DNA of 50,834 nucleotides, taken from an uncultured Clostridia bacterium. Lineage in GTDB: Bacteria; Bacillota; Clostridia; Christensenellales; CAG-314. The stretch lies in contig CANQPI010000012.1 in the NCBI GenBank assembly GCA_947625725.1, positions 1 to 50,834 of the forward strand, read 5' to 3'. Below, piece after piece: positions 13,586 to 48,241 of this stretch (the first letter of the stretch is position 1; every line of letters starts with the position of its first letter). A model generated the notes under the pieces. It was not told the DNA's origin, did no database searches, and worked only from the letters and a program-made list of their open reading frames with translations. A program made the position numbers and the translations under genes.

Positions 13586-14086
13586 TTACTGAATATAAAA
13601 TTTGTCCGTAAGTCCGCCCGTTTGAATGTGCGTCAAAGCGACAGCCAACGCGTCGGCGGCGTCGTCGGGTCGAGGTACTTTGGAAAGCCCCAAATAGACT
13701 TTGACCATTTCCTGAATTTGTTTCTTTTCCGCCCTGCCGTAGCCCGTCATTGCCTGCTTGATTTGCAGCGGCGTGTACTCGTAGAGCCTACCGCAATGAT
13801 GTACCGCCGCAAGCAACAGCACGCCTCTTGCATGCGCAACGTTTATGCCCGTGGTGATATTGGTGTTGAAAAACAACTCCTCGGCGGCAATTTCGTCGGG
13901 TTTGAACTTTTCGATAAGATCCGTCACCGCCTTGTAGATAATTGCAAGGCGCACGGGAAAACTTTCCTCTTTGGGCGTGGTGATAACGCCGTAGTCCACC
14001 ACCGATTTGCGGTTGAAATCTTCAAAATCCAACACACCGTAGCCCACTATCGCCAGCCCGGGGTCGAAACCGATAACTCTTTTCAT
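13586..14086 (-). CDS. ruvC: Crossover junction endodeoxyribonuclease RuvC
   Basis: A 166-residue resolvase with an RNase H fold. The catalytic acidic residues are D8 (GFDPG), E69/E70 (AAEELFF) and D141/D142 with D145 (DDAADA). The start MKRVIGFDPG was chosen from the family N-terminus; the upstream in-frame extension to 14167 runs through the promoter. The ribosome site is weak (TAGG). This is the first gene of a ruvC-ruvA-ruvB-queA-tgt operon, driven by the promoter at 14112-14140. Confidence 0.95.
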   Translation of the reverse strand: MKRVIGFDPGLAIVGYGVLDFEDFNRKSVVDYGVITTPKEESFPVRLAIIYKAVTDLIEKFKPDEIAAEELFFNTNITTGINVAHARGVLLLAAVHHCGRLYEYTPLQIKQAMTGYGRAEKKQIQEMVKVYLGLSKVPRPDDAADALAVALTHIQTGGLTDKFYIQ

Positions 14087-14111
14087 AAGCGTGCCTATTA
14101 ACCTAGAATAT

Positions 14112-14140
14112 AATATATAACAACCAAACGCAAAAGTCAA
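14112..14140 (-). promoter_or_regulatory. Sigma-A type promoter for the ruvC operon
   Basis: TTGACT, 17-nt spacer, TATATT on the minus strand, giving a leader of about 20 nt before the ruvC ATG. Confidence 0.8.
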
Positions 14141-14159
14141 GTGAAACGCGAAAAGGAGC

Positions 14160-14190
14160 GTCGGCACACTTGCGCCCCGTAGGGGTCGGT
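14160..14190. repeat. Dispersed 31-nt repeat, copy 1
   Basis: This segment is the reverse complement of 49772-49802 with one mismatch. Its core is a short palindrome built around CCCCGTAGGGG next to GCGC/GTGC-type pairing. It lies just beyond the ruvC promoter, at the edge of the first hairpin-rich gene-free region. Confidence 0.85.
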
Positions 14191-14263
14191 TGCGCGGAGC
14201 AATTCTTCCGCTCGTGAAAAAGTCGATTTTCTATTTTCGGCATTGCTGTGGTACAAGTTGTTC

Positions 14264-14326
14264 TAATCAGAGTTCCGACCTTGTTCACACAGGCGCGAGT
14301 GTATCCCTCGCAAAATAATCTGCAAC
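14264..14326 (+). repeat. Triplicated motif, copy a
   Basis: Begins TAATCAGAGTTCCGACC and ends TAATCTGCAAC. The block CCTTGTTCACACA followed by a CACGAGTG/CGCGAGTG segment recurs at 14817 and 15216. Copies a and c also share a TATCCCTCGCAAAATAATC tail. In copy a the partner arm of the nested hairpin is missing. Confidence 0.8.
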
Positions 14327-14345
14327 ACACTTGCCATTGTAAAAG

Positions 14346-14406
14346 GGGCACTGAGGGTGTTGCATAACAGAATAATATGCAACAAGCATTATCCTTGTTT
14401 CTGGGG
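14346..14406. repeat. Small hairpin element between repeats
   Basis: GTTGCAT and ATGCAAC form a 7-bp stem around 12 nt (about 14359-14384). An outer GGCACT at about 14347 can pair with AGTGCC at 14407-14412, which is also the first arm of the next element. The segment GAGGGTGTTGC here recurs at 14413-14423. Confidence 0.6.
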
Positions 14407-14529
14407 AGTGCCGAGGGTGTTGCTCGAAAAATAATCTGCAACGAAAACGCCACACAAGTGGGTTTTGTTCCCCTACTAAATGTGTGGCGTTTGAAGCGAA
14501 GCCTTTTTTCGAGCAATGCCCGAGGCACT
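14407..14529. repeat. Nested structured hairpin element H1
   Basis: Outer arms 14407-14431 and 14505-14529 pair as AGTGCC, a GA/GA mismatch, GGG, a TG/TG double wobble, then 12 perfect pairs ending in CGAAAAA. Inside is a second perfect 12-bp stem AAACGCCACACA (14445-14456) with TGTGTGGCGTTT (14481-14492). The internal-loop strands TAATCTGCAA and GAAGCC and the hairpin-loop CTACTAAAT recur in element H2. No protein-coding potential is seen. It may be a structured RNA or a mobile-element end. Confidence 0.75.
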
Positions 14530-14530
14530 T

Positions 14531-14784
14531 AAATAGGGATTTGAGTGAGCGCAGGACGTGTGGACACAACGCACAAGCGGACAAAACTCAAATCCCGTCT
14601 GCATAAAAGTGTTTTTTCAAATAAACCCAAGAGGCAATAATTGTAATATCTAGACGGCTTTGACAGTCGAAACTCATCCACCGTCTGACGACGGTCCCCT
14701 TCCCTTGCGTCCCCAAGGGAAGGCTTTTAATGCAGTCGCCGACGTTGTTTCCCATTATAATGGAAAGCATTGTTTTGTTGTAAC
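14531..14784. repeat. Duplicated 254-nt unit, copy 1
   Basis: Contains an 11-bp inverted repeat GGGATTTGAGT (14536-14546) and ACTCAAATCCC (14586-14596), a CCGTC/GACGG hairpin near 14681-14694, a perfect 10-bp stem CCTTCCCTTG/CAAGGGAAGG (14698-14723) and the palindrome CCATTATAATGG. Copy 2 lies 357 nt further on, in the same orientation, at an estimated 85-90 percent identity by eye. Confidence 0.85.
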
Positions 14785-14816
14785 AGTGGCAATCTTTATC
14801 TCTAAACAAACAATTC

Positions 14817-14855
14817 TAATCAGAGTTCCAACCTTGTTCACACAGGCACGAGTGT
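14817..14855 (+). repeat. Triplicated motif, copy b
   Basis: Begins TAATCAGAGTTCCAACC and runs through CCTTGTTCACACAGG to GAGTG. It lies between the two copies of the 254-nt unit and lacks the TATCCCTCGC tail of copies a and c. Confidence 0.75.
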
Positions 14856-14887
14856 GTTGCCCGAGTGACAATTGTATTTGGTCAAAA

Positions 14888-15142
14888 AAATAGGGATTTG
14901 AGTGAGCGCAGGGCGTGTGGACACAACGCACAAGCGGGCAAAACTCAAATCCCGCCTGTAAAAAAATTGTTTTCCAAATAGACGCAAGAGGCAATGATCG
15001 TAATATTTAGTCGGCTTTGAAAGTCGAAACTCATCCACCGTCTGACGACGGTCCCCCTTCTCTTGCGTCCCCAAGAGAAGGCTTTTAGTGCAGTTGTCAA
15101 CGTTGTTTCCCATTATAATGGAAAGCAATATTTTGCTATAAC
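14888..15142. repeat. Duplicated 254-nt unit, copy 2
   Basis: Same order of inverted repeats as copy 1: GGGATTTGAGT (14893-14903) with ACTCAAATCCC (14943-14953), the CCGTC/GACGG hairpin, a perfect stem CCTTCTCTTG/CAAGAGAAGG (15056-15081) and CCATTATAATGG. The stem differs from copy 1 by one paired change, C-G to T-A, so base pairing is preserved. Confidence 0.85.
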
Positions 15143-15215
15143 GCAAGTACAACTTCGCCTCTCGAATGGAAAACTTTCTCCACAGCAACCAACTTTGTTA
15201 CGGTGCAAGTTGTCC

Positions 15216-15278
15216 CAATCAAAGTTACAGCCTTGTTCACACAAGCGCGAGTGTATCCCTCGCAAAATAATCTGCAAT
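15216..15278 (+). repeat. Triplicated motif, copy c
   Basis: Starts CAATCAAAGTTACAGCC and contains CCTTGTTCACACA, then GCGCGAGTG and the TATCCCTCGCAAAATAATC tail. Its 3' half is the left arm of hairpin element H2. Confidence 0.75.
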
Positions 15279-15362
15279 GAGTGCCGCACACAAGTAAAAA
15301 AATTGCTCTACTAAATCGTGTGCGGCGCGAATGAAGCCTTTTTGCGAGGGATATGCGAGCGC
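15245..15362. repeat. Nested structured hairpin element H2
   Basis: Outer arms 15245-15267 and 15340-15362 pair as GCGC, a GA/GA mismatch, one G-C pair, a TG/TG double wobble and 14 perfect pairs. The inner stem GCCGCACAC (15283-15291) with GTGTGCGGC (15318-15326) is perfect. Internal-loop strands TAATCTGCAA and GAAGCC and the loop CTACTAAAT match H1, while most paired bases of the arms differ. Confidence 0.78.
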
Positions 15363-15391
15363 AAAACTTGCGCTTGGTCGGAAAAAGGAGA

Positions 15392-15421
15392 GGGGCTGTG
15401 CAGTTAAAATTGCACAGCCCC
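15392..15421. terminator. Intrinsic terminator after the lipoprotein gene
   Basis: Perfect 11-bp stem GGGGCTGTGCA/TGCACAGCCCC with an 8-nt loop. On the minus strand it is followed by TCTCCTTTTT, on the plus strand by GTTTT, so it may act in both directions. Confidence 0.75.
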
Positions 15422-15504
15422 GTTTTCACGAGTTTTTCCCAACCTCATGCGCGCAGTCGGAGAAAAAACACAATGAAAAACTAATTGGTAGGTAGAGAAA
15501 AAGT

Positions 15505-17712
15505 TTACCACTCAAATGTAACGCCAACTATAACAAAGTTATTTTTCTGTTTCCAAGGCATTTGAATTTCGAGAATATTTGACGCTTCCGTCAATTCCAC
15601 TTCCGCATTAAACGCACTACTGAGTTTTCCGTTGTAAGTAGCATCTTCTTTATCTTTTTTGAACGATACTCCGTTTACGGTAAACTCTGTCGTAGTTGCG
15701 TCGGCAAACGGGACTATTCTGAAAGTAATTTTCTTAATTTGATGCATTGTAGTAAATGTCGCCGTAGCCGAGTTGTCTATTGCAGGCAAAGCAAAGTATC
15801 CGAAACCTTGACCGTTCTTGGAAACGGAAAGATTTGATGCCGAAAAAGCAGTTATTTCTTGTTGCTCAGGCGACCAAGTATTCAATTTAGTAAACATGTC
15901 CGATACGGAATCGTAAGTGTAAATATTATCTACAATGCTATTCTCTGTCAGGTTGCCCGACCAATCATATATTATGGTATCTGACTGTCCGTCGCTTACC
16001 GTAAGCGTAATTTCGTTTGAAGTAATATTGGCACATCTAACGGAAATTTTCACTTCGCCTGCGGCAACAGCAGTAATTGTGGCTTTGCTCTCGTCGCCCG
16101 TTACGGTTGCCTTGGTTTCGTCGGAAGTCAGCCATTCGACATTTTCGAATACCGCATTGGCGGGAGTTATGCTCTTGACCGTTATTTCAACGGAATACGG
16201 AACAGTCACTTCCGTTTGCTCCGCCTCGATCTCTATCGCAGTAAGTACGGGAAGTTGCAAAGATTTTATTGTGTTCATTGAAGTTAGCACACTTGCGGAG
16301 TAGACACCGTTGTCATTATGCATACTTGCCGCATAAAAAATGATTTGACTGCCGTCCAAACCGCCGTCTGCTTTGAGAGGTATCGTGATACCGTCTTTTT
16401 CCAATTGATCGTCTTTTACGGAGCAGACAAGCGTTTTGTCGTCGCTACCGAGCAGAGAAAACTCCCAACCGCCGCTGACTCTCTTAGACCCTGCGGCGAC
16501 CGTACCTGTGATATAAAATCCATGAGTTTCGTTTGAATCGTCCCCTTTAACATATTGATCGGTGCTCGCGATCAACGCGATCGCTTCGTCAACGGTGATG
16601 GGGTCATCTTGCTTTGTACCCTCTCGGTCTTGAATAACTATGGTGACGGAAGCGGACTTGTCGGTGTCCTTAGCCGTTGCGGTGAGCGTGATTGTGCCTG
16701 TTTGACCTTTGTAAGTCACACGCCCAAATTTAACCCCAACATAAGAACCCGATGAAAAAGTCACCATGTCTTCTTTGTCAACCGTCCAAACAATGTCCTG
16801 CGGAGCATTGGCGGGTTGAACTGTTGCGGTAAGTTCAATAAAATTCTTTTCCACAGGTAACAAGTAAAGAGTATCCCTTTTGGTGTTAAAAGATACTGAC
16901 TCTACTTCAACGGGAGGAGCGGGAACATATTTTTCGTAATGAATTACAACGGGATTGTTCTCAAAGTAATATTCTTTGGCAAGAGTGACCGCATTGTCAT
17001 ATAAATCGTCAACCTGTCCGTTGTAGTAGTTACCGCCAAGGTAACGTGTTTCGTCGGAATATGTCGCACAGAAAGTATTATATTCTTCACTCCATTTCCA
17101 TTCGATTGCGTCGTTGCTCGGAGTGTTGACAAGACGCATATTTTTGTATGTACCGTTGAGATATGCTTCGAGGTATTTCTCGCCTATCTTCAAGGTGTAT
17201 TTGCCATTTTCATAGAGAACGGTAAGTACCGCCACTTTTGCGTTGGAGTGATTGACAATAAGACCACCCTTACTGCCTATATCTCCCGTCACATACCAGA
17301 CAAGATTGTTGGTTTCGTCCCTCAACACAATGTTATAGTCGCCTGCTTCCAAACCTGCTTGTTCGTGTCCCTCGCACTTGTCTGCGCAGACGGGGTCGGT
17401 GCAGGTTTCGTCAAGACATTTGCCGCAAGTTTCGCAAACGTGCTTGCAGACGTGAGGAGTCAGTTTGGGGATCTCTACGGGCTTGCTTATCTCATTCTTG
17501 CCCTCGCTATCCGAAAACATCTTGCCGCACACACTGCACTTCCAATATGCCTCGTAGCCTGCTTCTTCCAACGTGGCGTCCTTTTTGCCCACTGCGGTCA
17601 ACTTGTGACCGTTGGTTGCACAATCGTCTTTGTCGCAGGCGGCTATTACCGATACGAACGTAAACAGCATTGCCAAGACGAGCAACAAAGCAACTAATCT
17701 TTTTTGTTTCAT
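15505..17712 (-). CDS. Large secreted lipoprotein with Ig-like (Big_2-type) domains
   Basis: A 735-residue protein. A lipoprotein signal peptide ends in VIAAC, with C26 as the lipid-modified residue. A cysteine-rich segment follows (KCSVCGKMF near 60 and a C-x2-C cluster around 88-115), typical of clostridial surface proteins. Two Ig-like bacterial domains are recognisable at about 265-360 and 480-570, each ending in a beta-strand alternation and a TLTV-type segment. A region near 365-470 resembles an OB-like module, and the C-terminus is rich in beta structure. It is probably displayed on the cell surface; ligand or enzyme activity is not visible. AGGAGG lies 6 nt before the ATG. Its promoter carries an operator-like inverted repeat facing an XRE regulator gene. 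Confidence 0.82.
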   Translation of the reverse strand: MKQKRLVALLLVLAMLFTFVSVIAACDKDDCATNGHKLTAVGKKDATLEEAGYEAYWKCSVCGKMFSDSEGKNEISKPVEIPKLTPHVCKHVCETCGKCLDETCTDPVCADKCEGHEQAGLEAGDYNIVLRDETNNLVWYVTGDIGSKGGLIVNHSNAKVAVLTVLYENGKYTLKIGEKYLEAYLNGTYKNMRLVNTPSNDAIEWKWSEEYNTFCATYSDETRYLGGNYYNGQVDDLYDNAVTLAKEYYFENNPVVIHYEKYVPAPPVEVESVSFNTKRDTLYLLPVEKNFIELTATVQPANAPQDIVWTVDKEDMVTFSSGSYVGVKFGRVTYKGQTGTITLTATAKDTDKSASVTIVIQDREGTKQDDPITVDEAIALIASTDQYVKGDDSNETHGFYITGTVAAGSKRVSGGWEFSLLGSDDKTLVCSVKDDQLEKDGITIPLKADGGLDGSQIIFYAASMHNDNGVYSASVLTSMNTIKSLQLPVLTAIEIEAEQTEVTVPYSVEITVKSITPANAVFENVEWLTSDETKATVTGDESKATITAVAAGEVKISVRCANITSNEITLTVSDGQSDTIIYDWSGNLTENSIVDNIYTYDSVSDMFTKLNTWSPEQQEITAFSASNLSVSKNGQGFGYFALPAIDNSATATFTTMHQIKKITFRIVPFADATTTEFTVNGVSFKKDKEDATYNGKLSSAFNAEVELTEASNILEIQMPWKQKNNFVIVGVTFEW

Positions 17713-48018: not shown

Positions 48019-48029
48019 GTAGATACAAT

Positions 48030-48241
48030 ATAAATCCGGTAGGTGAGGCTACCATGGGGATACGGGTTGCTACCGACACAGCGTGGAGACACGCGACGTC
48101 AGGGCAGCAGGATTTGTCGAAAACAAGGCTTATCCTAATGCAATTACACAGCCCCATGATGCTAAAACTTGTAATGGTTGGACGTCGTTTCCGTCAGTGA
48201 GAAACATTGCGGTCTGTGCTGTTACAAGCACGGGCTTTTTT
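48030..48241 (+). promoter_or_regulatory. M-box (ykoK) magnesium riboswitch
   Basis: The conserved core GGTAGGTGAGGCTACCATGGGGATACGG-type segment at about 48038-48068 and the following GCTACCGAC match the M-box. The expression platform is a terminator: GTCTGTGCT (48212-48220) pairs with AGCACGGGC (48227-48235) and six T residues follow. High magnesium should favour termination and lower mgtE expression. Confidence 0.92.

What the first reader, a model, noticed from the sequence alone, without database searches (positions are those of the whole stretch)
14407..15362. Two nested hairpins keep identical non-Watson-Crick motifs while their arms differ
Seen: H1 (14407-14529) and H2 (15245-15362) share one layout. 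Each outer stem has a symmetric GA/GA tandem mismatch, then G-C pairing (three pairs in H1, one in H2), then a TG/TG double wobble, then a long perfect stem with a different sequence in each. Each has internal-loop strands TAATCTGCAA and GAAGCC, an inner perfect stem of different sequence, and CTACTAAAT in the terminal loop. Known: sheared tandem G-A pairs are typical of structured RNAs. Inference: this is a family of structured RNA, or the end of a mobile element kept for RNA or DNA folding. I do not recognise a described class.
Basis: partly seen in the sequence, partly recalled or inferred. Interest (0 to 1): 0.8.

Follow-up and report, generated by a model that had tools for sequence, protein, structure and literature searches.

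The report
Nested hairpin repeats in uncultured Clostridia
The two hairpins belong to a family of short repeated hairpin sequences scattered between genes in one genus of uncultured Clostridia, kept in shape by matching changes in their arms; how they spread and what they do is not known.

Summary
Observation confirmed. H1 and H2 are copies of a dispersed intergenic repeat. A covariance model from 14 copies gives 399 match rows in 18 of 25 genomes of the window's genus. This is an upper bound on units, since some hairpins match on both strands. In an order-wide sample 9 of 200 genomes match, all genus members. No Rfam family reaches its threshold. Stems change with pairing kept; loop letters TCTGCA and GAAGCC are 92-100% conserved; GA/GA is mostly kept. 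The TG/TG wobble alternates with Watson-Crick pairs. The + strand folds: G.T 36 versus A.C 8. Units nest up to three levels. The copy beside ruvC is private to this genome. No gene-bearing copy was found, and none of three enzyme families searched is linked to the units. Small inner hairpins favour C(GNA)G triloops, 23 of 39 against 10 of 315 controls, a loop noted for stability in DNA. Best reading: a MITE-like non-autonomous repeat recognised as a folded + strand, more likely single-stranded DNA than RNA; mobilising enzyme unknown.

The parts
14407..14529 (+). H1: complete unit (outer stem 14407-14412/14524-14529, GA/GA 14413-14414/14522-14523, stem 14415-14431/14505-14521, loop strands 14432-14444 and 14493-14503, inner stem 14445-14456/14481-14492)
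   Evidence: sequence, inverted repeats I2 and I13, RNA fold z -10.2, R1 139.5 bits
15245..15362 (+). H2: complete unit, different arms, same loops
   Evidence: inverted repeat I5, fold z -8.2, R1 122.9 bits
14293..14326 (+). 5' arm only, same type as H2 (GCGCGAGTGTATCCCTCGCAAAATAATCTGCAAC); the H2 3' arm at 15340-15362 could pair with it
   Evidence: repeat D2 and inverted pair I4; arm scan; weak R1 hit, 16.0 bits, E 0.09, in L120 2205-2270
14347..14382 (+). 5' arm only of another unit type (GGCACT-GA-GGG-TG...TGCAA); looks like an outer level of a nested set around H1 whose 3' arm is missing here
   Evidence: arm scan; nested version in L044
14275..14292 (+). leader CCGACCTTGTTCACACAG that precedes the outer stem; similar leaders precede many copies
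   Evidence: read by eye in the flank listing of 63 copies in 18 genomes
15227..15244 (+). leader of H2 (ACAGCCTTGTTCACACAA)
14846..14869 (+). possible collapsed remnant of a unit: outer 5' end joined directly to outer 3' end
   Evidence: third copy of repeat D2; read by eye against flanks printed; inference

Best explanation
H1 and H2 are two copies of a short, non-autonomous, dispersed intergenic repeat of one genus of uncultured Clostridia, of the MITE/ERIC kind. Shown: it is multi-copy; its placement at the locus tested is lineage-specific; its 3' end more often faces gene stops than starts; units nest in one another; the stems drift with pairing kept while the loop core stays nearly fixed; and the + strand is the strand that folds. 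Inferred: a protein supplied in trans recognises the folded + strand through the GA/GA steps and the AATCTGCAAC/GAAGCC internal loop rather than through the stem sequence. It copies or inserts the unit into intergenic DNA and into the loop of older copies, which would build the Russian-doll arrays. The folded form is more likely single-stranded DNA (exposed during replication or as a cruciform) than a transcript.
For: 399 match rows in 18 of 25 genus genomes, an upper bound on units; 48 sense-strand matches in the own-genome stretches searched (71 rows less 23 opposite-strand ones). Own copies of 92-97% identity over 113-150 bases on several contigs, so recent spread. Beside ruvC the unit is present in 1 of 24 genomes; own Big_2-to-ruvC spacing is about 1.4 kb, against roughly 0.2-0.3 kb in three relatives with a similar neighbour. 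Mean pairwise identity is 42% in the variable stem and 89% in the loop strand over 69 copies; without any pattern filter, TCTGCA letters are kept in 60-65 and GAAGCC letters in 63-65 of 65 distinct copies of relatives. Own arms pair in 81% of variable positions, arms of different genomes in 52%. G.T 36 versus A.C 8 outside the TG/TG positions. R1 scores H1 139.5 on + and 47.4 on -. C(GNA)G in 23 of 39 triloop inner hairpins (12 of 28 as distinct stem-plus-loop), against 10 of 315 control triloops counted on either strand; 0 GNRA and 0 TTCG among 11 tetraloops. Stable d(GNA) triloops with a C-G closing pair: PMC5815330 (passages seen). The 3' end faces a gene's stop in 82 and its start in 35 of 138 cases, so read-through from that gene would carry the minus strand, which folds less well. 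Nesting.
Against: No mobilising protein is linked to the units: the RVT_1, Y1_Tnp and Xer-like loci examined carry a unit nearby in only a few cases, and other transposase families were not searched. No target-site duplication or terminal TA could be shown, because flanks are too diverged between species. C(GNA)G loops may also be tolerated in RNA; copies within a genome are not independent; the control hairpins had longer stems (6 or more, against 3 or more). Pairing of arms can be restored by DNA-level palindrome correction without selection. No expression data exist.
Confidence: 0.55

Rival explanations
1. A family of structured RNAs (free or in untranslated regions) that happens to be multi-copy; the loop core binds a protein, and the TG/TG and GA/GA steps are RNA motifs.
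For: Strand-specific folding with many G.T pairs, pair-preserving change, near-invariant loop, tandem GA steps typical of structured RNA (recalled). In single cases the unit lies directly before a start codon, for example L056, where its 3' end runs into an AAGGAG (read).
Against: The unit's 3' end faces gene stops on the opposite strand more often than starts (82 to 35 of 138), so read-through would give the minus strand. Inner loops are mostly triloops, often C(GNA)G, with no GNRA or TTCG among 11 tetraloops. No conserved site among 24 ruvC loci. No Rfam family at its threshold.
Confidence: 0.25
2. A folded single-stranded DNA recombination site worked by a tyrosine recombinase, in the manner of integron attC sites.
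For: Structure kept while stem sequence drifts, one strand folds, arrays of sites. A Xer-like recombinase (299 aa in the own genome) is found in 12 of 18 unit-bearing and 0 of 7 unit-free genomes (in G013 only a 117-aa fragment; Fisher p 0.005 ignoring phylogeny).
Against: No protein over the integron-integrase cut-off in 25 genomes; 24 have weaker, general tyrosine-recombinase matches. The Xer-like gene shares a neighbour in 8 of 13 loci and has a unit within its flanks in 1 of 12 genomes. Six unit-bearing genomes lack it, among them G011 with 52 match rows. The conserved AAC/GTT ends of attC (recalled) are not seen in the outer stems.
Confidence: 0.1
3. Passive palindromes: repeats amplified by replication slippage and template switching, arms kept equal by intrastrand correction, no recognition at all.
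For: Nested, collapsed and chimaeric forms; palindromic repeats of other kinds in the same array.
Against: Correction would remove the outer GA/GA mismatch, yet it is kept (GA found on the 5' side in 69 and the 3' side in 70 of 75 copies by a permissive pattern). Loop strands are far more conserved than stems. Dispersal over contigs needs more than local slippage.
Confidence: 0.1

Closest known systems
Bacterial MITE-like repeats (ERIC/RU-1, RUP, Correia/NEMIS, YPAL/RU-2; review PMC2229807, part 1 and passages seen)
   Same: Small, multi-copy, intergenic, no gene, long imperfect stem-loop, mobilising enzyme mostly unknown
   Different: No TA termini or target-site duplication shown; variable stem at 42% mean identity while the loop stays fixed; units nest inside one another; arms of different types are combined
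Rfam Gut-1 (RF01706; PMC2864571, passages seen)
   Same: Hairpins with variable stems and fixed linkers, from gut samples; sub-threshold Gut-1 matches lie about 20 and 230 bases from a unit in L074
   Different: Gut-1 is a row of small hairpins with GUGAAAU linkers; it is not among the matches to the H1/H2 stretch
Integron attC sites (PMC2727003, listing with start of abstract seen)
   Same: Single-strand folding, structure conserved without stem sequence
   Different: No integron integrase over cut-off, no conserved AAC/GTT ends, no gene cassettes seen
IS200/IS605 ends and REP sequences
   Same: Hairpins with mispairs (recalled); Y1 transposases in 12 of 25 genomes
   Different: The IS200-like copies printed have other, short hairpins (by eye); the model finds no unit at the ends of the 12 loci checked

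Membership tests
Bacterial MITE (criteria of PMC2229807, part 1 of 3 and passages read) | small (<200 bp), multi-copy, mainly intergenic, no protein | tested here: met
   match rows and spans; gene context by crude ORF calls; no gene-bearing copy found
Bacterial MITE | transcript or strand forms a long stem-loop | tested here: met
Bacterial MITE | 5'-TA-3' at the termini and target-site duplication | tested here: inconclusive
   3' ends often abut a stop codon, but the 5' boundary is not defined and no close empty site was found
Bacterial MITE | terminal inverted repeats shared with an IS of the same genome | tested here: inconclusive
   only 12 IS200-like (Y1) loci checked, no unit at their ends; other IS families not searched
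Rfam RNA families | match at or above a gathering score | tested here: not met
   best sub-threshold overlap with H2 is sau-5971, 24.6 bits against a cut-off of 90
Integron attC | integron integrase in the genome | tested here: not met
   0 of 25 over the TIGR02249 cut-off
Integron attC | conserved AAC and GTT triplets at the stem ends (recalled) | tested here: not met
   outer stems vary: GAGC, GCGC, AGGC, TGCC and others (read)
Gut-1 RNA | covariance-model match to the unit | tested here: not met
   Gut-1 not among the 4 matches up to E 5 in 14200-15450

The most novel reading that the evidence does not exclude
A new kind of mobile unit that is recognised as a folded strand (GA/GA steps plus a fixed asymmetric internal loop, stems free to drift) and that inserts into the loops of its own copies, growing as nested hairpins; a chromosomal enzyme, possibly a Xer-like recombinase, drives it.
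Probability: 0.25. Interest if true: 0.85.

Novelty: new variant of a known kind. Interest (0 to 1): 0.58.

Why it matters
It is a large, strongly covarying family, unlisted in Rfam, with a fixed loop core and clear strand polarity, so it gives a good test case for whether bacterial MITE-like repeats are recognised by shape rather than by sequence. It also warns that pair-preserving change alone does not prove an RNA: the loop statistics here point to DNA. The repeat probably also breaks assemblies, since several copies lie at contig ends.

Tried and rejected
Rfam: nothing at threshold in 14-15.4 kb. At permissive E-values there were four weak matches in 14200-15450; one, sau-5971 (24.6 bits, cut-off 90), overlaps the 3' end of H2 and was taken as chance. 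Reverse transcriptase as driver: RVT_1 in 4 of 25 genomes, rejected as general driver. IS200/IS605: Y1_Tnp in 12 of 25 (11 of 18 with units, 1 of 7 without, Fisher p 0.07); in 12 of the 26 Y1 loci examined no unit lies at the ends, though L271 has one about 850 bases from a degenerate Y1 fragment. Integron integrase: 0 of 25 over cut-off. Xer-like recombinase: co-occurrence 12 of 18 against 0 of 7, but rarely beside units and perhaps only following phylogeny; kept as a lead. Autonomous copy: of 385 five-prime-arm matches (overlapping loci repeated), 225 found a matching 3' arm within 7 kb, 5 of them 700 bases or more away. Three of these five are the window's own array, and one (L208) was read and is a neighbouring gene. 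L060 was not read further, and 160 arms had no match, so a gene-bearing copy is not excluded. Viral contigs: exact pattern found in 0; plasmids and phages: no match. Target-site analysis at ruvC and clpB: flanks too diverged. The stop-codon bias is a general one (82 stop, 35 start); flush cases alone (26 stop, 5 start within 15 bases) are not significantly more biased (p 0.067). Vienna DNA parameters gave equal energies to all triloops, so the stability argument rests on the literature. On checking, I found that the 399 rows probably hold opposite-strand duplicates (23 of 71 rows in own stretches; 10 of 92 in relatives), so I call them rows and an upper bound. The loop conservation had been counted after a pattern filter on the same letters, so I recounted it without one. 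Papers: eight searches (lists capped, two with up to three papers, one empty) showed no description of this repeat; the library lacks most subscription journals and all bioRxiv preprints.

Full report
Check of the observation. As RNA both fold far better than shuffles: z -10.2 and -8.2. For H1 the opposite strand also folds strongly but less well, -58.7 against -65.3 kcal/mol; there GA/GA becomes TC/TC and TG/TG becomes CA/CA. The window's stretch 14102-15504 lies between ruvC (13586-14101, -) and a Big_2-domain gene (15505-17712, -).

The family. BLASTN with H1 and flanks finds 49 matches in the own genome and matches in 14 of 41 genomes; all 14 belong to the 25 genomes of the genus, and none of the 16 genomes of other families match. 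I aligned 14 own copies with a structure written by hand. In 13 distinct rows 96.7% of 429 cells pair, with 52 double changes against 18.5 in shuffles. The covariance model R1 matches 18 of 25 genus genomes at E 0.01 or better, with 399 rows by sum of the table; own genome 68 rows, others 2 to 52. The listing was cut, and a check on own-genome stretches shows 23 of 71 rows to be the same hairpin on the opposite strand, leaving 48 sense matches. So the rows overstate the units. In seven low-copy genomes all 32 rows (E up to 0.1) are separate places. Seven genus genomes have no match. In a sample of 200 genomes of the order, with stricter filters, 9 match; all are of this genus, and the other 101 genera give none. 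The titles are uncultured Clostridia from 'Lapin' samples (French for rabbit; the host is my inference), Clostridiales HAN102-105, one uncultured Clostridia bin SRR13573575, a 'Corallococcus' record whose contig lengths equal those of G001, and one Clostridium thermobutyricum bin in which R1 finds nothing. Viral, plasmid and phage collections gave none.

Anatomy. A unit reads: leader (often like ACCTTGTnnnACnnGG), outer stem, GA/GA, GGG/CCC (or GTG/TGC and others), a TG/TG or TA/TA step, a variable stem ending in AAAA/TTTT, then an internal loop whose 5' strand is [T/C]AATCTGCAAC and whose 3' strand ends in GAAGCC, then an optional inner stem that often starts with another GA/GA. In the model-fitted alignment of relatives (92 rows from 64 fetched loci; 10 opposite-strand rows dropped, 65 distinct copies) the letters of TCTGCA are kept in 60-65 and those of GAAGCC in 63-65 of 65. 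Such copies were found by the model, so they lean to it. By a permissive pattern the outer GA is found on the 5' side in 69 and on the 3' side in 70 of 75 copies. The smallest forms have no inner stem (L112, L117, L119). The variable stem has 42% mean pairwise identity and the loop strand 89% over 69 copies. Own arms pair in 81% of variable positions, arms of different genomes in 52%, over 63 copies in a fixed register that does not allow for bulges.

Which strand, RNA or DNA. Of 84 distinct rows 63 could be parsed (the rest include opposite-strand rows). Outside the TG/TG positions they show 868 Watson-Crick, 36 G.T, 8 A.C and 32 other cells and 95 gaps on the + strand, so the + strand is the one that folds. 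I then looked at the loops of the small inner hairpins. Of 63 distinct inner segments 39 close with three bases, 23 of them C(GNA)G (GTA, GCA or GAA); of 11 tetraloops none is GNRA or TTCG. Counted as distinct stem-plus-loop, 12 of 28 are C(GNA)G, found in 8 labelled genomes. Control hairpins more than 400 bases from a unit core have C(GNA)G or its complement in 10 of 315 triloops; the control demanded longer stems. PMC5815330 speaks of stable DNA triloops of the d(GNA) family with a preferred C-G closing pair, resembling the GNRA tetraloop of RNA (passages seen). This favours single-stranded DNA but does not exclude RNA.

Nesting and mosaic. In L044 three levels lie inside one another, 5' arms in order and 3' arms in reverse order, and the whole folds with z -7.5. 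A conservative parser over the fetched DNA finds 136 simple matched hairpins and 10 that enclose another, in loci of G007, G012, G019 and G004; it missed the L044 case. In the window the H1 array has two further 5' arms (14293-14326, 14347-14382) whose 3' arms are not where nesting would put them; the H2 3' arm could pair with the first (I4). Chimaeric units, with outer and inner stems of different types, occur (for example L047).

Placement. Beside ruvC the unit occurs in 1 of 24 genomes. Three relatives have a Big_2-like gene next to ruvC (34-49% identity) with a short spacer. At clpB (name recalled from its sequence) R1 finds a unit in 2 of 25 loci: G002 flush with the stop, and G000 about 100 bases on. 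A third hit, in G004, is weak (17.1 bits, E 0.055). One contig (G007) ends 11 bases past the stop within letters that look like a unit's end (23 of the 25 loci printed). Over 138 outermost 3' ends, with crude gene calls (ORFs of 100 aa or more), 82 face a stop, 35 a start and 21 have no gene call.

What moves it. No enzyme is tied to it. RVT_1 is in 4 of 25 genomes, Y1_Tnp in 12, and an integron integrase over cut-off in 0. A Xer-like recombinase (299 aa in G000; XerC model 213 bits, cut-off 335) is in 12 of 18 genomes with units and 0 of 7 without (G013 only a fragment, G024 at 50% identity). It is beside a unit in 1 of 12, shares a neighbour across 8 loci, and is missing from six unit-bearing genomes. 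Phylogeny may explain the co-occurrence.

Comparison. The unit works like a bacterial MITE (criteria in PMC2229807: part 1 and passages read): size, copy number, intergenic place, stem-loop. TA ends, target-site duplication and shared IS ends could not be tested well, so I call it MITE-like and not a MITE. Gut-1 (RF01706; PMC2864571, passages seen) is a neighbour in one genome but a different structure.

Verdict. The most likely reading is a non-autonomous repeat recognised as a folded + strand, with DNA favoured over RNA; mechanism and enzyme are inferred. Interest 0.58.

Noticed in passing
14531-14800 and 14888-15142: A second composite repeat (a GGGATTTGAGT...ACTCAAATCCC hairpin, then a GTCGAAACTCATCC...CAAGGGAAGG part and a TTTCCCATTATAATGGAAA palindrome); 54 BLASTN matches in the own genome. 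A similar GTCGAAACTCATC part sits inside the inner hairpin of a unit in L098 (G012).
   Followed up: partly
L074 1174-1268 and 1392-1481: Rows of small hairpins with GTGAGAT/GTGTTAT linkers next to a unit score below threshold as Rfam Gut-1 (36.5 and 42.2 bits, cut-off 50).
   Followed up: partly
48028-48189: M-box magnesium riboswitch (RF00380, 102.9 bits).
   Followed up: no
1-42: tRNA fragment cut by the window's edge, minus strand (Rfam).
   Followed up: no
L305 1468-2364 (-), and loci L307-L317: Xer-like tyrosine recombinase found only in genomes that carry the hairpin units (12 of 18 against 0 of 7).
   Followed up: partly
L056 1497-1617 (-): The 3' end of one unit runs into a likely Shine-Dalgarno AAGGAG just before an ATG on the folding strand, so this copy could affect translation.
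   Followed up: no
L164, L225, L237 (JAMPAB01): Public record named Corallococcus sp. NALB_7811_3 has contig lengths equal to those of the genus member G001; probably a mislabelled bin.
   Followed up: no
own contigs C19, C25, C26, C31, C36: Units lie within about 200 bases of contig ends, so the repeat probably broke the assembly and copies may be missing.
   Followed up: no
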